From contig NZ_KZ304967.1 in the NCBI RefSeq assembly GCF_002723615.1, positions 1 to 62,706 of the forward strand: a stretch of DNA of 62,706 nucleotides, written 5' to 3'. The stretch comes from Limimaricola cinnabarinus. GTDB lineage: Bacteria > Pseudomonadota > Alphaproteobacteria > Rhodobacterales > Rhodobacteraceae. The notes beneath the pieces are model-generated. The model saw only the letters and a program-made list of their open reading frames with translations. It searched no databases and was not told where the DNA came from. The position numbers were made by a program, and so were the translations under genes. This document shows, piece after piece, positions 1-4,838 of this stretch; position 1 is the stretch's first letter; each line of letters begins with the position of its first letter.

Positions 1-13
1 CTCGGGGGGCGTG

Positions 14-382
14 ATGAACCCCGAAACCATAGCCGCCGCATACCCTGACCTGTTCCCCCGCCGGGTCCAGCGCGCCCACATGGCGCTGCTTACTTGGGCA
101 GAGGGGGCGAACCCCGACCGATGGCCGACCCCGCCTGATGTGTGCCGGTTCGCCCGGCTCTACGGGGTGCCCCGCGCCACCTTGGGCGCGCTCGTGGGGA
201 TGCTCTCCATGCGCCACGACAGCCAGACCCGCGAGACGTGGGTGGACGCTGTGCGCAACCCGGAGGACGCCCCGCCGCACCTGATCCAGCGCCACTCCCG
301 GGACGTGATCCGGGCCTTCGGCTGGTTCTGCGCAACCACGGACCTCGGATGGCTCCGCCTCCCAAGGTGCAGTATTCATTGA
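14..382 (+). CDS. Hypothetical protein, possibly 5'-partial or 3'-truncated
   Basis: I do not recognise this 122-residue protein. Codon use is strongly G/C-ending, as expected for a real gene here, until about position 360, where composition suddenly becomes A/T-rich and the frame stops. The C-terminus may therefore be a junction artefact of the low-GC insert that follows. The frame is open to the left edge, so the true start may be outside the window. The ATG at 14 is preceded by a G-rich stretch, and a GTG directly before it is an alternative. The stretch RFARLYGVPRATLGALVGML (residues about 47-66) could be helix-turn-helix-like, but this is weak. It is probably cargo of the integrated element. 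Confidence 0.45.
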   Translation: MNPETIAAAYPDLFPRRVQRAHMALLTWAEGANPDRWPTPPDVCRFARLYGVPRATLGALVGMLSMRHDSQTRETWVDAVRNPEDAPPHLIQRHSRDVIRAFGWFCATTDLGWLRLPRCSIH

Positions 383-408
383 TATCAGTTGGAAAAGATG
401 AACCTAAA

Positions 409-576
409 ATGACTGAACAACGCGAGAGAACCTTCTCAGAGCATCCAACCAAGGAAATGATTAAGGTCGGAGTTTCCGCACTCCGCCGAAATCTCTTTGG
501 CCAACCTATCGAGCAAATCGTCGAAGAATTGCTGCCAGATGTGATGCAATATCACGAAGCTTGGGAAAACGATTGA
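409..576 (+). CDS. Small hypothetical protein (55 aa) in the low-GC insert
   Basis: An unrecognised 55-residue, charged, probably soluble protein that begins MTEQRERTFSEHPTKEM. The frame is open much further upstream, but only in a different compositional context. I chose the ATG at 409 because base composition changes just before it and a GGAAAAG-like ribosome site lies about 11 nt upstream. Its 3' end overlaps the end of the convergent gene to the right by 25 nt. Codon use is much more A/T-ending than the backbone, which supports transfer. Function unknown; the coding call is moderate. Confidence 0.45.
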   Translation: MTEQRERTFSEHPTKEMIKVGVSALRRNLFGQPIEQIVEELLPDVMQYHEAWEND

Positions 577-1175
577 AACGCACGCCAAATTAGCCCCTTA
601 TGGTACTTAATCATGGCTACACAAGCAGTTGGTGCCAAGGGGTGAATGGTGCGACCTAAGTGCTGCGTTGGAGGGTCAAATGAATCGCCAAAGCGGTCGT
701 CAGTCACAGTAAGTAATTTTGCGGTCGACGGCACTATGGTAAGACGCTTTTCAGGTATTTGACTTAAATCCAGCGCATCTGCTTCGATCTTCACGTCACC
801 AATGCGCACACGGCTTGTTGTCTTCGATCTGATCACATCTCCCCGCTCTAGGCGGCCGAACGCTCTTCCAGGCACGTGTTCGATCGTTCGTTGGAGCCCG
901 TGCTGCTCGACATTCCTTGCCTGATGGAGCCACTGTAGTAGCGGATCCTCTTTCCGCATTTTCCTTTCAGAACCCCAAAAAGATTTAGTTCTCTGGTCTG
1001 CCATAGCTCCATTCTTGATTTTCTCGAAAACCTTTGCGCTGTAATCAAGGAAGGCTGACCAGTTGGATCGGTATTCATCGAAGCTTTTGGCAACAAGCAT
1101 TCTCTCGTAGGCAAGTGATGCCGCGTCATTTGCATCATTGGCTTGGCTGATGGCCTTGCGCTGAATTGGCGTCAT
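552..1175 (-). CDS. Hypothetical protein, 207 aa, low-GC insert
   Basis: A soluble 207-residue protein without obvious signal peptide or membrane segment. The N-terminal half looks helical. It contains the stretch QWLHQARNVEQHG (residues about 81-93), reminiscent of the helical RN-x-x-x-H signature of HEPN-type proteins, but this is only a resemblance and the C-terminal half is unrecognised. Codons are far more A/T-rich than in neighbouring backbone genes. The ATG at 1175 is preceded by a weak GAG site. The 3' end overlaps the convergent 55-residue gene. It is likely acquired cargo; a defence or toxin role would be speculation. Confidence 0.6.
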   Translation of the reverse strand: MTPIQRKAISQANDANDAASLAYERMLVAKSFDEYRSNWSAFLDYSAKVFEKIKNGAMADQRTKSFWGSERKMRKEDPLLQWLHQARNVEQHGLQRTIEHVPGRAFGRLERGDVIRSKTTSRVRIGDVKIEADALDLSQIPEKRLTIVPSTAKLLTVTDDRFGDSFDPPTQHLGRTIHPLAPTACVAMIKYHKGLIWRAFQSFSQAS

Positions 1176-1376
1176 GTTTATCTCAGCTGAGTTCGCAACA
1201 ACTCGCCTTATATCATTAAATCAGCTCTCTGCCAGCCGCGAGATGCGACGTAACCACCAGTAACGGCCACCGAACCCCGAAACGGACCGTCCAGAGGGTG
1301 GCGCTCCAGGTGACCGGAAGCGCCTTGCCCTGTGGGACGCGCCGGATGGGTCCGGCGTGACCTTTTCGGGGTGGTG

Positions 1377-1739
1377 TCAGGATGCGCGCTTTTGCTCGAA
1401 CGCCTCAATGACGTTGCGCGCATGGACGGCGGCGTGCTTGACGACTTCAAGCACCTCTGCCGCCGCGCGTTCCTCCGGCTCGGAATACTCCATAGACAGT
1501 TCCTCCGCCCACTTGGCGACGGCACCCAAGATGACCGGGTACAAATGCTGGTCACGCGGCGACACAACGAGACCTACCTCCACCTCTCGTGCGATCAACG
1601 CCCCGAAATGGCGCATCAGGCTCTGAAGTCCGAGGCAGTCAAGTTCCCATTCGGTGGAAAGCTGTTGGAGGTCCCACATCTGCTTGCGGATGGCCGCGCG
1701 GTCCTCAGCCGTGAGCTTGTTGTATTCAATATCGTCCAT
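1377..1739 (-). CDS. Hypothetical protein, 120 aa
   Basis: An unrecognised acidic, helix-rich protein starting MDDIEYNKLTAEDRAAIRKQ. I chose the ATG at 1739 over an upstream in-frame start (1817) because a strong AAGGAG ribosome site lies 8 nt before it and the upstream extension (Pro/Ala/Trp-rich) looks non-coding. No catalytic motif, signal peptide or membrane helix is visible. It diverges from the XRE regulator across a 359-nt gap. The position suggests element cargo; no function is assigned. Confidence 0.6.
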   Translation of the reverse strand: MDDIEYNKLTAEDRAAIRKQMWDLQQLSTEWELDCLGLQSLMRHFGALIAREVEVGLVVSPRDQHLYPVILGAVAKWAEELSMEYSEPEERAAAEVLEVVKHAAVHARNVIEAFEQKRAS

Positions 1740-2098
1740 TCCATTCACTCCTTGGTTCGGAGCGCTGGCAGACGGATCGGGCCACGCGGGCGCACAGACA
1801 GCCGACAGCCAGCGCAACCGGGGTTGCGATCAGGCAGGTCGGCGGGATCACGTCTCTTTGGGCGGAACCACTTACGAAACCGGACATGCTAACCCAGCTT
1901 CGCCAACAGCAAGCGTATTGGAGCACTACCTCCCCTTTGCGTCAATCACGATTTGTAGTTGCCTTTGGGCCCAGATTGCGCAACACCGCAGCGGCACAGA
2001 GGATAATCCTGTCTGGATCAAAAAATTAACCTTGGTGGTTGACAGATTAAGCCTGCGACCGCATATTGCTAAAGACCCACCCGTGAGGAGCCACGACC
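1740..2098. other. Intergenic region upstream of the XRE regulator
   Basis: This gap is A/T-rich towards its right end and holds the ribosome site of the leftward gene, the promoter and operator-like repeat annotated separately, and a GAGGAG ribosome site before the XRE start. I see no additional gene in it. Confidence 0.5.
2026..2067 (+). promoter_or_regulatory. Predicted sigma70 promoter with overlapping inverted repeat (candidate operator)
   Basis: A perfect -35 TTGACA (2039-2044) is followed after 17 bp by CATATT (2062-2067), four of six matches to the -10 consensus. An imperfect inverted repeat TTAACC-ttggt-GGTTGA (2026-2042) overlaps the -35 box. That is a natural place for the downstream XRE protein to repress its own promoter; autoregulation is inferred. 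Confidence 0.5.
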
Positions 2099-2455
2099 AT
2101 GACCACAGAAATTGGAAAGGAGCTGCGGAAACTGCGAATTGATGAGGACGAGCGTCTGCTTGACATGTCGCAGCGCCTTGAAAGGTCCTCTGCTTTCATT
2201 TCCGCCGTTGAGCGCGGTACAAAAAGCCCGCCCTCGGGCTTTGAAGAAATTGTTATCAAAGCCTACCGTCTTGCCGGGGAGGCTGCCGATGTGATGCGCC
2301 GGGCAGCCGACCGATCTCGGAAAGCCTTCACCATTGAGGCGGATAGCCCACTGGCCCGCGACACTGCCGGGCTAATGGCACGACGCATGGACAGCCTGTC
2401 CGACGACGAACTCAAGAGCATCTTCCAAATCCTCAACAAGAAGGACGCCAAATGA
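2099..2455 (+). CDS. XRE-family helix-turn-helix regulator, partner of ImmA-like protease
   Basis: A 118-residue protein with an N-terminal Cro/C1-type helix-turn-helix (residues about 6-60: GKELRKLRIDEDERLLDMSQ, then SAFISAVERGTKSPPSGFEE). The C-terminal tail is charged and probably helical. The stop overlaps the start of the next gene (ATGA), so the two are translationally coupled. XRE/ImmA pairs are known from ICEBs1 and many prophages, where the protease cleaves the repressor to trigger the element; others act as toxin-antitoxin-like pairs. The promoter in front carries an inverted repeat suited to autoregulation. DNA binding is firmly suggested; the target is inferred. Confidence 0.8.
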   Translation: MTTEIGKELRKLRIDEDERLLDMSQRLERSSAFISAVERGTKSPPSGFEEIVIKAYRLAGEAADVMRRAADRSRKAFTIEADSPLARDTAGLMARRMDSLSDDELKSIFQILNKKDAK

Positions 2456-2991
2456 GTAGTACGGACGATTACAAGGTGCCGCCCCTGAGCTGGCCTGCCA
2501 TCGGCAGCAGGGCTGACAGCTTTCGCCAACAATTCGGGCTACACGCCTTTCCCGAGGTCCCCGTAATCGAGCTGATCGAACAGGTCCTTGACCTCCAGCT
2601 CAACCTAGTACGTTTCGACGTGGGATCACACCACGAGATGGGACGTGCCGAAGGGTACACCTGCCCCACCGGAAAGTTCATCATGCTGCGCGAGGACGTG
2701 TACGAAAAGGCTTGTGCCGGGGAAGGACGGGCACGCTTCACAGCCGCGCATGAGCTCGGGCACTGGCACCTACATACGAATGTGCCACTCGCCCGGGCGA
2801 AACGAGGCGACGGCACTAAGCCGTATTGCCTTGCGGAACCCCAGGCGAACCAGTTTGCCGCCCAGTTCCTGATGCCTCAGAGCTTCATCTACGCCTCAGA
2901 TCGGGAACAAGACCTTGTAGAACGGTTCGGCGTCTCTTGGGACGCCGCCCACCACCGCCTCCGTTACCTTCGAAAGAATGGGAGGCTTTAA
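2452..2991 (+). CDS. ImmA/IrrE-family metallo-endopeptidase
   Basis: A 179-residue zinc protease of the ImmA/IrrE (COG2856) family. The HEXXH zinc motif HELGH is at residues 100-104 in the context TAAHELGHWHLH. The downstream helix AEPQANQFAAQFLMP (about 128-142), with its conserved glutamate, is the usual third-ligand region of this family. There is no signal peptide or membrane segment, so it acts in the cytoplasm. It overlaps the XRE gene by 4 nt and is expected to cleave or antagonise that repressor, as ImmA does ImmR. The same family includes IrrE/DdrO-type stress switches, so a damage-response role is an alternative. Confidence 0.85.
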   Translation: MSSTDDYKVPPLSWPAIGSRADSFRQQFGLHAFPEVPVIELIEQVLDLQLNLVRFDVGSHHEMGRAEGYTCPTGKFIMLREDVYEKACAGEGRARFTAAHELGHWHLHTNVPLARAKRGDGTKPYCLAEPQANQFAAQFLMPQSFIYASDREQDLVERFGVSWDAAHHRLRYLRKNGRL

Positions 2992-3161
2992 CGCAAGAAG
3001 GCTCAGGTTGGCGCCCGAGCCTCCAAGTGAAATTCTGAATCGTGCATCAGGGGCTTGACGATGCAGAGCCTCCCGAAAACGCAAATCAGCTTCCGTTGCA
3101 AGGGCCGATATAGCGCTTTTCGGGTCAAATGGCAAGATACGCCCCGAAGGAGAACGAGGGA

Positions 3162-3299
3162 ATGGCTAAGAAGCACACACCTCCTCCGCCGGGTTATCGG
3201 TACGTGTTCCGCCCGTGGCGCACGTGTCCGAAGACCGGGCAGCGCCTCTACGCGAAAGCGTTTGGCCTGCGCGCCTGGCCGATCTTGGTTCCTGAGTGA
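3162..3299 (+). CDS. Small conserved-looking protein with Y-V-F-x-P-W and RAWPI motifs (45 aa)
   Basis: A 45-residue basic protein (MAKKHTPPPPGYRYVFRPWR, then C-P-K-T-G and YAKAFGLRAWPILVP). A good AAGGAGA ribosome site lies 8 nt before the ATG. From memory, similarly short proteins with the pattern Y-x-Y-V/I-F-x-P-W ... A-W-P-I occur in many alphaproteobacterial genomes, often near mobile regions; I cannot verify this here. No known function. It is followed by a G/C-rich hairpin. Confidence 0.6.
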   Translation: MAKKHTPPPPGYRYVFRPWRTCPKTGQRLYAKAFGLRAWPILVPE

Positions 3300-3326
3300 G
3301 CCCGGGTTGACGCGATAGAAATTTGG

Positions 3327-3352
3327 AGCGGGCGGTGGAAACATCGCCCGCT
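3327..3352 (+). terminator. Hairpin after the 45-aa gene (weak terminator)
   Basis: An eight-base-pair perfect stem AGCGGGCG / CGCCCGCT with a 10-nt loop lies 27 nt after the stop codon. Only a short pyrimidine-rich stretch follows, without a clear T-run, so termination is plausible but not certain. Confidence 0.4.
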
Positions 3353-3385
3353 TCGGCCTTTCTGGGCGACGGTTCGCAGCCCAGA

Positions 3386-3402
3386 GGAACACGGTTCGCG
3401 CA
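3386..3402 (+). repeat. 17-bp direct repeat, copy 1 (flanks tRNA-Arg)
   Basis: GGAACACGGTTCGCGCA occurs here and again, identically, at 3532-3548 on the other side of tRNA-Arg. The second copy covers the predicted -35 region of the tRNA promoter, so this copy looks like a duplicated piece of tRNA-flanking sequence produced during integration or rearrangement. Confidence 0.7.
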
Positions 3403-3431
3403 CAAAACATCGAGTTAAATCAAGAAGAAGA

Positions 3432-3508
3432 TGGTGACCCCGGCAGGACTTGAACCTGCAACCTATCCCTTAGGAGGGGATTGCTCTATCCAGTTGAGCC
3501 ACGGGGCC
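3432..3508 (-). tRNA. tRNA-Arg (anticodon CCU)
   Basis: Read on the minus strand this is a full 77-nt cloverleaf ending in an encoded CCA. The acceptor stem GGCCCCG pairs with CGGGGTC (one G-U pair). The anticodon stem ATCCC/GGGAT encloses loop CTCCTAA, giving anticodon CCU, which reads AGG. The T arm GCAGG-TTCAAGT-CCTGC is canonical. A partial second copy lies upstream at 3607-3646, and the anticodon stem differs between them. This copy therefore probably belongs to the integrated element and replaces the interrupted resident gene. Confidence 0.95.
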
Positions 3509-3519
3509 TAATTTTCACC

Positions 3520-3549
3520 TTCATACGGTTCGGAACACGGTTCGCGCAA
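3520..3549 (-). promoter_or_regulatory. Possible promoter of tRNA-Arg
   Basis: On the minus strand TTGCGC (3549-3544) and TATGAA (3525-3520) are separated by 18 bp and lie just upstream of the tRNA 5' end. The match is moderate. The 17-bp repeat copy at 3532-3548 overlaps it. Confidence 0.35.
3532..3548 (+). repeat. 17-bp direct repeat, copy 2
   Basis: Identical to the sequence at 3386-3402. The two copies bracket the intact tRNA-Arg at 24-30 nt distance on each side. Confidence 0.7.
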
Positions 3550-3606
3550 GGCTGCCTTTTTCCTAAGCGTATGTCTCTCCATCTTCTTTCGGCCCCGGAC
3601 CCTCCG

Positions 3607-3646
3607 CTTAGGAGGGGGCTGCTCTATCCAGTTGAGCCACGGAGCC
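3607..3646 (-). pseudogene. 5' half of a second tRNA-Arg(CCU); probable attachment site
   Basis: On the minus strand this 40-nt stretch matches the 5' half of the intact tRNA-Arg (nucleotides 1-40) at 37 of 40 positions, from the acceptor strand GGCTCCG through the D arm and up to the anticodon loop CCTCCTAAG, where similarity stops abruptly. The missing 3' half is not within reach. This is the pattern expected when a site-specific recombinase inserts an element at the anticodon loop. It cannot fold as a tRNA by itself. Confidence 0.75.
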
Positions 3647-3812
3647 GCGTCCCTTCTCCATGCCCCGCTTTGCCCGGCCCGTCAACGCCCGACCCCTTGC
3701 CACCCTGCCCCTCGAAGCCCCGGCCCGCGAGGCCCATCCCTCAACGCCGCTTGGACAAGCCGGGCGGCGCGGCCTATAGCTCGGGCATGCCTGACATTCG
3801 CGGACACCACCC
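3647..3812. other. Intergenic region before the LacI-type gene
   Basis: Together with the spacer at 3509-3606 this forms the gene-free gap between tRNA-Arg and the LacI-type gene. It is G/C-rich and Pro-codon-like in several frames. I see no convincing ORF, hairpin or strong promoter in it. It presumably holds the original promoter of the interrupted tRNA-Arg (leftward) and that of the LacI-family gene. Confidence 0.3.
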
Positions 3813-4838
3813 ATGACCATACCCCCCCGCCGCCCCCTGACCCTGCGCGATGTCTCCGAAGCGTCCGGGGTCAGCGAGATGACCGTGAGCCGGGTGCTGC
3901 GCAACAAGGGCGATGTGAGCGAGGCCACCCGCGCCAAGGTGCGCGCCGCGGCCAAGAAGCTCGGCTACGTGCCCAACCGCATCGCCGGTTCGCTGGCCTC
4001 GAGCCGGGTGAACCTCGTGGCGGTGATCATCCCCTCCCTGGGCAACATGGTATTCCCCGAGGTGCTCTCGGGCATTTCCGAGACGCTGGCGGGCACCGGG
4101 CTGCAGCCGGTGTTCGGCGTCACCGATTATCGGCCCGACACCGAGGAGCGGGTGCTGTTCGAGATGCTGTCATGGCGCCCTTCGGGGGTGATCATCGCCG
4201 GGCTCGAGCACAACGAGGCGAGCCGGGCTATGCTGATGCGCGCCGAGATCCCGGTGGTCGAGATCATGGACAGCGACGGCGCGCCGATCGACGCCTGCGT
4301 CGGCATCAGCCACCGCCGGGCCGGGCGCGAGATGGCCGAGGCGATCCTGCGCGAGGGCTATCGCCGGATCGGCTTTCTCGGCACCAAGATGCCGGCCGAC
4401 CACCGGGCGCGCAAACGCTTCGAGGGCTTCACCCGCCACCTCGCCCGCGCCGGTGTCGAGATCGCGGATCAGGAGTTCTATTCGGGCGGCTCGGCGCTCA
4501 AGAAGGGGCGCGAGATGACCGAGGCGATCCTGTCGCGCACGCCCGATCTCGATTTTCTCTACTACTCCAACGACATGATCGCCGCGGGCGGGCTGCTGTG
4601 GCTGCTCGAACGGGGGATCGACATCCCCGGGCAGATCGGGATCGCCGGGTTCAACGGGGTCGAGCTTCTCGACGGGCTGCCCTGCCAGCTTGCCACGATG
4701 GATGCCTGTCGCCGCGAGATCGGCCGCGAGGCGGCACGGATCATCGCCGCGCGCTGCGCCAACCCGGCCGAGGGCGGCGGCGAGCGGGTCGAGCTGACGC
4801 CGCTGATCGCGCGGGGCGACACGCTGCAGCGCAGCTGA
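3813..4838 (+). CDS. LacI-family transcriptional regulator (GntR-gluconate-like)
   Basis: A 341-residue repressor. The N-terminal LacI helix-turn-helix (residues about 9-60) reads LTLRDVSEASGVSEMTVSRV followed by the hinge-helix region KLGYVPNRIAGSLAS. The remainder is a periplasmic-binding-protein-like effector domain (about 65-335). The length and the NLVAVIIPSLGNMVFPEV start of the effector domain resemble regulators of gluconate or sugar-acid catabolism (GntR of the LacI family). No sugar genes adjoin it, so ligand and regulon are unknown. It is the first backbone gene after the tRNA-Arg junction. Confidence 0.88.
   Translation: MTIPPRRPLTLRDVSEASGVSEMTVSRVLRNKGDVSEATRAKVRAAAKKLGYVPNRIAGSLASSRVNLVAVIIPSLGNMVFPEVLSGISETLAGTGLQPVFGVTDYRPDTEERVLFEMLSWRPSGVIIAGLEHNEASRAMLMRAEIPVVEIMDSDGAPIDACVGISHRRAGREMAEAILREGYRRIGFLGTKMPADHRARKRFEGFTRHLARAGVEIADQEFYSGGSALKKGREMTEAILSRTPDLDFLYYSNDMIAAGGLLWLLERGIDIPGQIGIAGFNGVELLDGLPCQLATMDACRREIGREAARIIAARCANPAEGGGERVELTPLIARGDTLQRS

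What the first reader, a model, noticed from the sequence alone, without database searches (positions are those of the whole stretch)
3386..3646. tRNA-Arg(CCU) with an adjacent 5'-half copy: an element that appears to bring its own complete tRNA
An intact tRNA-Arg(CCU) lies 98 nt from a 40-nt 5' half of another tRNA-Arg(CCU) (37/40 identical) that stops exactly in the anticodon loop at CCTCCTAAG. Most tRNA-targeting elements supply only the 3' part needed to restore the gene. Here the resident gene seems split at the anticodon loop, while a full replacement with a different anticodon stem is present on the element side.
Basis: partly seen in the sequence, partly recalled or inferred. Interest (0 to 1): 0.7.

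Follow-up and report, generated by a model that had tools for sequence, protein, structure and literature searches.

The report
Mobile islands that replace split tRNA
A small mobile DNA island has cut the host's only gene for one arginine tRNA in two and, right beside the cut, brings a complete spare copy; related islands in other bacteria do the same, and the spare matches the cut gene in every case where both cut pieces could be read.

Summary
A 40-nt 5' half of tRNA-Arg(CCU) (3607-3646, minus) lies 98 nt from an intact tRNA-Arg(CCU) (3432-3508, minus). The missing 3' half is on another contig (C10:7317 on), beside a tyrosine integrase. All 7 same-genus genomes examined have one unbroken tRNA there. 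Of 47 tRNA genes in this genome, the island copy is the only Arg-CCU.

It is not a one-off. The integrase family leads to 20 genomes (this one included) with a split tRNA-Arg, an arm-type repeat pair at fixed distance, then a whole tRNA-Arg 86-113 nt from the core. Where both halves could be read, split and carried anticodon agree (18 of 18). In 24 of 24 genomes bearing the module, the carried gene is the only complete tRNA found for its anticodon. Three genomes keep it although no core island genes were detected nearby.

The logic is tRNA-dependent lysogeny, known in actinobacteriophages. New here: small phage-satellite-like islands (integrase, VapE-type primase, TerS-like protein, often restriction-modification cargo), the tRNA fixed beside attP, target and carried tRNA changing together at least twice, and apparent domestication. 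No experiment was done.

The parts
3607..3646 (-). displaced 5' half of the resident tRNA-Arg(CCU), ending in the core CCTCCTAAG (3607-3615) = attachment junction on this side
   Evidence: host flank continuous with the intact gene of 7 relatives
3432..3508 (-). complete carried tRNA-Arg(CCU); the only Arg-CCU gene among 47 tRNA genes of this genome
3525..3545 (-). pair of arm-type repeats GCGAACCGTGTTCCGAACCGT between core and carried tRNA (integrase binding inferred, not tested)
3386..3401 (+). further arm-like repeat GGAACACGGTTCGCGC on the far side of the carried tRNA (such repeats counted here in this element and G416, one in G429, none in the other 17 of 20)
1..3606 (.). part of the island on this contig (about 58% GC against about 68% for the host part); the rest is C10:1-7316, another contig
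2..382 (+). conserved island gene F04 (found in 9 of 13 elements compared; no Pfam or PHROG match for the member scanned from G418); the contig break falls between it and gene F09 on C10
2099..2991 (+). cargo: HTH protein (2099-2455, below Pfam's cut-off) and Peptidase_M78/IrrE-like protein (2452-2991)
552..1175 (-). island ORF, 207 aa, no Pfam match
1377..1817 (-). island ORF, 146 aa, family F13 shared with one other element
3647..4838 (+). host flank with a LacI-type regulator gene (3813-4838; name from reading the sequence, not from a family search), continuous with the empty site in relatives

Best explanation
The window holds one end of a roughly 10.9-kb integrative island. Its tyrosine integrase recombined attP with the anticodon loop of the resident tRNA-Arg(CCU) gene, using a core of only about 9 bp. 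The resident gene was therefore cut in two and not rebuilt at either junction. The island compensates with a complete tRNA-Arg(CCU) placed just behind the arm-type repeats of its attachment site, on the same strand as the cut gene. Shown from sequence: the split, the empty site, the integrase, the sole-copy status and the conservation of the module. Inferred: that the carried tRNA is expressed and charged, that loss of the resident gene would otherwise be harmful, and that the island is or was mobile. Read-through from the resident tRNA promoter is my preferred, untested, source of transcription. The same module occurs across an integrase family in which target and carried tRNA change together, which is what selection for gene replacement predicts.
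For: 3' half next to the integrase gene on C10 (Phage_integrase and Arm-DNA-bind_3). Empty site in 7 of 7 same-genus genomes. Arg-CCU occurs once among 47 tRNA genes, and that one is carried. Module found in 17 of 22 genomes reached by the integrase scan, plus this genome, G300 and G325. Split and carried anticodon agree in 17 of 17 script-rejoined cases plus this genome read by hand. The carried gene is the only complete match for its anticodon in 24 of 24 module-bearing genomes by pattern, and in 21 of these the other Arg isoacceptor (UCU or CCU) is found whole elsewhere. Independent motif scan: 9 of 394 family genomes hit, reversed control 0, and 9 of 9 hits are followed by a complete tRNA-Arg. 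CCU-targeting elements are not one clade (AU p = 0.014, group named after a first tree was seen). Core-to-arm distance is gap-free in all 20 aligned elements, core-to-tRNA 86-113 nt.
Against: No expression, circular form or excision was tested. No promoter-like or terminator-like site was found at 3300-3900, so the transcription source is open. For CCU the need is not proved, since tRNA-Arg(UCU) might read AGG by wobble (general knowledge). The anticodon lies inside the crossover core, so in other genomes the identity of the split gene is read from a stretch that either partner could have supplied; in G422 the two junctions differ by one core base. C10 and C17 are separate contigs: their adjacency rests on matched halves and gene order in relatives; in 7 more of the 20 genomes module and integrase also lie on different contigs. 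Five of 22 genomes did not show the module: G420, G423 and G427 have no complete UCU gene by the pattern, G434 has a half plus whole tRNA without the arm motif, and G437 has a whole tRNA-Arg(UCU) with neither half nor arm motif before it, with its integrase contig cut by N: unresolved, possibly a counter-example. Of 9 motif hits, 2 lack a matching half upstream: G343 has no recognisable tRNA half, and the half in G385 has the loop CTTTTAA, though it aligns better to Arg-UCU genes than to tRNA-Lys.
Confidence: 0.9

Rival explanations
1. Ordinary tRNA-targeting island: element DNA restores the gene at one junction, and the half copy is the displaced fragment.
For: This is the usual case; Islander counts 3760 islands with a displaced 3' fragment and 159 with a 5' fragment (passages of PMC4383910).
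Against: Neither junction carries a restored gene: the 5' half runs into CGGAGGGTCCGG..., and the 3' half is preceded by element DNA. Upstream host flank belongs to the half, not to the whole tRNA.
Confidence: 0.02
2. The half is a chance partial duplication or a decayed pseudogene with no mobile element involved.
For: tRNA fragments are common in genomes (general knowledge).
Against: Complementary 3' half beside an integrase, lower-GC island, empty site in 7 of 7 relatives, same arrangement in 20 genomes.
Confidence: 0.02
3. The carried tRNA serves another purpose, such as codon supply or resistance to host tRNA-cutting defences, and its match to the target is incidental.
For: Phage tRNAs have been proposed to do both (abstract starts seen in the listing).
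Against: ARAGORN shows one tRNA beside the half, of the target's anticodon (18 of 18 readable), it is the only copy found in 24 of 24 module-bearing genomes, and it is fixed behind attP.
Confidence: 0.06
4. The island is a degenerate prophage rather than a phage satellite; the tRNA replacement came with an ancestral full phage.
For: TerS-like protein and phage-type integrase; three of 12 measured elements (5.8-6.2 kb) look degraded; S. meliloti prophages that split tRNA-Leu and carry a replacement exist (PMC11476347).
Against: The nine larger elements keep 10.7-14.3 kb and the same integrase-end gene order. The best of 7 matching records among 50,697 phage records has 27% identity over 90% of the query; the viral contig scan, which finds close relatives only, gave none.
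Confidence: 0.25

Closest known systems
tRNA-dependent lysogeny of actinobacteriophages (Guerrero-Bustamante and Hatfull, mBio 2024, PMC10865867; abstract, passages, sections 10 and 11 read)
   Same: Tyrosine integrase with arm-binding domain; core of about 8-17 bp in a host tRNA; gene not rebuilt; [quoted passage not shown]
   Different: There: temperate phages of Actinobacteria, requirement proved by mutants. The prototype's tRNA overlaps gene 37 and its upstream region was shown to be a promoter. Here: small satellite-like islands, in records named mainly as Alphaproteobacteria, tRNA fixed 86-113 nt from the core behind the arm sites, target and carried tRNA changed together, apparent remnants. 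Nothing proved by experiment.
Sinorhizobium meliloti prophages in tRNA-Leu(UAG) (PMC11476347; section 7 and passages read)
   Same: Alphaproteobacteria; two prophages integrated in the central part of a tRNA gene and carry a functionally similar tRNA.
   Different: Described as intact prophages similar to a Mesorhizobium phage, another tRNA; no family-wide module described in what I read.
Phage-inducible chromosomal islands (PICI) and other small satellites
   Same: Size, integrase, HTH/excisionase-like gene, primase-helicase, TerS-like protein, defence cargo (features of PICIs recalled).
   Different: Helper dependence not tested; many members hold a serine-resolvase-type gene; I recall no PICI with this tRNA module, and did not search the PICI literature beyond the listings.
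Tycheposons (recalled; seen only through passages of PMC10872708)
   Same: tRNA at one border and a tyrosine recombinase.
   Different: In the passages read they are 4-200 kb cargo transposons; no split resident tRNA with whole replacement is described there.

Membership tests
tRNA-dependent lysogeny / integration | tyrosine integrase with N-terminal arm-binding domain | tested here: met
   PF00589 and PF13356 in L037:5931-7151
tRNA-dependent lysogeny / integration | short attP/attB core inside a host tRNA | tested here: met
   9-nt core CCTCCTAAG shared by both junctions
tRNA-dependent lysogeny / integration | host tRNA not reconstructed at attL or attR | tested here: met
   ARAGORN finds no tRNA in C10:1-20000, which holds the 3' half, and at the other end only the carried gene
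tRNA-dependent lysogeny / integration | element encodes tRNA of the disrupted isotype | tested here: met
   anticodon CCU in both; 18 of 18 readable across the family
tRNA-dependent lysogeny / integration | disrupted host tRNA is essential and the element tRNA is required for stable lysogeny | not testable with these tools
   sole-copy status only
tRNA-dependent lysogeny / integration | element is a temperate phage | tested here: inconclusive
   no close phage relative; ORFs scanned show a TerS-like protein but no capsid or tail match (not every ORF was scanned)
phage-inducible chromosomal island (PICI) | small island with integrase, excisionase/regulator, primase-replication gene, terS (definition recalled) | tested here: met
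   TerS assignment weak (E 1e-6 to 1e-15) and its family present in 9 of 13 elements compared
phage-inducible chromosomal island (PICI) | induced and packaged by a helper phage | not testable with these tools
   none
canonical tRNA-restoring island | functional tRNA regenerated at one junction from element sequence | tested here: not met

The most novel reading that the evidence does not exclude
These islands are gene-replacement devices: integration overwrites the host's single tRNA-Arg gene with the island's copy, the carried tRNA is exchanged whenever the integrase changes target, and when the island decays the tRNA stays behind, so that in some bacteria the only gene decoding AGA is now of mobile-element origin.
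Probability: 0.6. Interest if true: 0.75.

Novelty: new variant of a known kind. Interest (0 to 1): 0.62.

Why it matters
It carries tRNA-dependent integration from actinobacteriophages to a family of small islands found mainly in Alphaproteobacteria. It also gives a natural series (UCU and CCU targets, intact elements, apparent remnants) in which to ask how an element keeps target and replacement gene matched and how a host comes to depend on a foreign copy of a core translation gene. Island finders that expect a restored tRNA would probably misplace the end of such islands (inference). The published question of how widespread this is outside actinobacteriophages gets a partial answer.

Tried and rejected
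Phage DNA search with window 1-3700: the 20 of 243 records listed match only the tRNA stretch. Integrase search of viral contigs gave no relative; phages and plasmids gave only distant integrases. Promoter/terminator scan of 3300-3900 found nothing; a promoter straddling the arm sites (TTGCGA...TATCA) fits many rows by eye but not the two Sphingomonad rows, so I do not claim it. The idea that the carried tRNA lies between two groups of arm sites holds for this element and G416 (one repeat in G429) but for none of the other 17, so I say 'behind the arm sites'. The idea that all CCU-targeting elements descend from one switch is rejected at AU p = 0.014, but I named the group after seeing a first tree, which weakens the test; the trio plus G422 as one clade is not rejected, and the fewest changes on the tree are 2. 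G434 (Latescibacterota MAG) was dropped from the counts because its split-plus-whole tRNA lacks the arm motif and does not lie at the junction of its integrase. G435's halves did not fold as one tRNA after rejoining and are not counted as a match. Paper searches for island-borne replacement tRNAs listed no description of this family that I recognised; most papers were seen as listings only.

Full report
OBSERVATION. The intact tRNA-Arg(CCU) is at window 3432-3508 on the minus strand. The half copy at 3607-3646, same strand, matches its first 40 nt at 93%, i.e. 37 of 40, and ends in the anticodon-loop core CCTCCTAAG. The window is the whole of contig C17 (62,706 bases) of a 3.8-Mb, 67-contig genome, so the island runs off the contig end at window position 1. 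GC is about 58% in window 1-3000 and about 68% in the host part.

THE OTHER HALF. A pattern search of the same genome found two places with core plus 3' part: the carried tRNA, and C10:7317-7354. There the 3' half reads CCTCCTAAGGGGCAGGTTGCAGGTTCGAATCCTGCCGGAGTCGCCA and is followed by host DNA. On its other side lies a tyrosine integrase gene, C10:5931-7151 minus (PF00589 and PF13356). The acceptor strands of the two halves pair with each other. In 7 of 7 same-genus genomes (G001-G007) one unbroken tRNA-Arg(CCU) occupies the site, and the host DNA beyond each half aligns to the two sides of that one gene. So the resident gene was split in its anticodon loop.

ONLY COPY. Of 47 tRNA genes found by the Rfam model and typed with ARAGORN from fetched stretches and the window, Arg-CCU occurs once: the carried gene. 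It is 1 nt from the resident gene of G004, G006 and G007 (nearest-neighbour list).

FAMILY. A scan of genome contigs (one genome for each of 84,980 species) with the integrase returned 22 loci, 60-97% identical. Twenty of the 22 titles name Alphaproteobacteria, 9 of them Rhodobacterales (ranks partly recalled); the other two are MAGs labelled Thioalkalivibrio and Latescibacterota; 16 of 22 are MAGs. A search of 394 family genomes gave 10 matches, 6 of them close including the window's own. Of 385 genomes of the class only the window's own and G500 matched, and G500 repeats L066. Searching the 22 genomes for split-plus-whole tRNA and reading the hits shows the module (half, arm repeats, whole tRNA) in 17 of 22: G416, 417, 418, 419, 421, 422, 424, 425, 426, 428, 429, 430, 431, 432, 433, 435, 436. 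Adding this genome, G300 and G325 gives 20. In 12 of the 20 the module and the integrase are on one contig; in the other 8, this genome included, they are on different contigs and are tied by fitting halves. Among the five without the module, G420, G423 and G427 showed no complete UCU gene by the pattern (and at the integrase of G427 I recognised no 3' half). G434 has a half plus a whole tRNA-Arg(UCU) but no arm motif, and not at its integrase. G437 has a whole tRNA-Arg(UCU) without half or arms while its integrase contig is cut by N: unresolved. Fifteen of the 20 target UCU, five target CCU (this genome, G416, G417, G422, G424).

MATCHING. Rejoining the two halves in a script gave a tRNA-Arg recognised by ARAGORN in 17 of the 21 elements tried, and its anticodon equals that of the carried tRNA in 17 of 17. 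The four not resolved were this genome and G300 (locus orientation), G434 (no 3' half) and G435 (no fold); this genome was then read by hand and also matches. The anticodon sits in the recombination core, so by itself this reading could reflect attP; but a pattern for complete tRNA-Arg(UCU/CCU) found exactly one gene of the carried anticodon in 24 of 24 module-bearing genomes, each time the carried one, and in 21 of 24 one whole gene of the other anticodon elsewhere. What is missing is thus the isoacceptor that was split. A diverged second copy could escape this pattern, and some genomes are incomplete.

TARGET SWITCHES. On the integrase tree the CCU-targeting elements are not together: holding all five as one clade is rejected (AU p = 0.014; group named after a first tree was seen), though the trio G000/G416/G417 plus G422 as a clade is not; the fewest changes are 2. 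The carried CCU tRNAs of the trio differ from that of G422 at 21-22 of 77 positions. The trio's is 1-2 nt from resident CCU genes of the window's genus, while G422's nearest relative in a pool of 54 tRNA-Arg sequences is a carried UCU tRNA (8 differences). So target and carried tRNA changed together at least twice, perhaps by different routes (inference).

GEOMETRY. In 20 aligned elements the stretch from core to the arm-type pair (consensus GCGAACCGTTTTCCGAACCG) is gap-free; the carried tRNA follows 86-113 nt from the core, same strand. Two to three such repeats also lie on the integrase side in 17 of 18 elements scored; G428 scored 0 and has the variant AAACCG. That these are integrase arm sites is inferred from position and repetition.

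INDEPENDENT TEST. A scan of 394 family genomes for the arm pair alone (not chosen by tRNA) hit 9, with 0 hits for the reversed control. All 9 are followed by a complete tRNA-Arg, and 7 are preceded by a 5' half with the same anticodon loop. In G385 the half reads CTTTTAA; it aligns better to rejoined Arg-UCU genes (best score 33) than to the two tRNA-Lys genes on hand (24 and 16), so a decayed UCU half is more likely than a tRNA-Lys target. In G343 no half is recognisable.

REMNANTS. Four of the 9 were new. G101 (CCU) carries island core genes up to its contig end. G135, G385 and G343 show none of the island core genes in the 10.5-20 kb fetched (only one cargo match, in G135), no 3' half found nearby, and no integrase match at E <= 1e-40. 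In all three the tRNA behind the arm motif is the only complete tRNA-Arg(UCU) found. I read these as decayed islands whose tRNA has been kept. Fragmented assembly is a possible other reason, less likely for G135 (a 296-kb contig) and G385 (a 100-kb contig).

ISLAND CONTENT. Ten elements with both ends on one contig measure 5,785-14,279 bp, and G325 and G300 are about 12.8 and 11.9 kb (set by hand from the integrase position). The three short ones (G430, G431, G435; 5.8-6.2 kb) have shortened primase frames (252-436 aa against 769-843) and G435 a broken integrase frame, so they may be degraded. Integrase, HTH_17 protein and VapE-domain primase/helicase come first in the 13 elements compared, with gaps in G435 and one ORF masked in G436. 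In most larger ones there follow a resolvase (7 of 13), a TerS-like protein (9 of 13) and families F07, F05, F09/F16 and F04 without Pfam or PHROG match in the members scanned, then cargo, then the tRNA. Of 10 cargo proteins that I picked from 7 elements, 7 match restriction or modification families in PADLOC, from 6 of the 7. Here the cargo includes an HTH and a Peptidase_M78 protein. In this genome the contig break falls between F09 (C10:3-254) and F04 (window 2-382), which are neighbours in relatives, so the island is about 3.6 + 7.3 = 10.9 kb if nothing is missing at the break.

LITERATURE. tRNA-dependent lysogeny (PMC10865867; abstract, passages, sections 10 and 11) defines the logic and asks how prevalent it is outside actinobacteriophages; it cites the Lactobacillus prophage Lj965. 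S. meliloti prophages in tRNA-Leu(UAG) are a second precedent in Alphaproteobacteria (PMC11476347, section 7 and passages). Of 18 papers naming tRNA-dependent lysogeny (listing), no title concerns satellites; I read sections of two of them.

VERDICT. Real, well supported and best filed as working like tRNA-dependent lysogeny. Membership in that phenomenon is met on every sequence feature tested; the experimental requirement and the phage status of the carrier are open. New are the satellite-like carrier, the fixed module, coupled target and tRNA changes, and apparent domestication.

Noticed in passing
L184 (G135), L183 (G385), L182 (G343): Arm motif plus intact tRNA-Arg(UCU) without detected island core genes: likely remnants whose tRNA is now the only UCU gene found in the host.
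   Followed up: partly
L130 / L102 (G434), about 4260-4452 of the contig: A split 5' half plus whole tRNA-Arg(UCU), 108 nt core to tRNA, but without the arm motif; the family integrase on this contig abuts a complete tRNA-Pro instead. Possibly a second, independent element type using the same trick.
   Followed up: no
L064 upstream of 313 and L103 (G422): The 3' half reads CTACTAAG while the 5' half reads CTCCTAAG: one base of the core differs between the two junctions, which may mark the crossover region.
   Followed up: no
L183 4886-4925 (G385): 5' half with loop CTTTTAA upstream of a carried Arg-UCU: probably a decayed UCU half (aligns better to Arg-UCU than to tRNA-Lys).
   Followed up: partly
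L095 (G437:C68) and L071: Whole tRNA-Arg(UCU) with neither half nor arm motif in a genome that holds the family integrase on a contig cut by N: mixed population, broken assembly or a real exception.
   Followed up: no
L121, L123, L084, L068, L080, L082: Restriction-modification genes sit in the cargo slot near the carried tRNA in these six elements.
   Followed up: partly
window 2099-2991: HTH protein and Peptidase_M78 (IrrE-like) protein as overlapping gene pair in the island cargo.
   Followed up: no
L117 (G420:C129), 5' half near base 363-406: Another split tRNA-Arg 5' half with a CCU loop and without the arm motif, presumably a different element in the same kind of tRNA.
   Followed up: no
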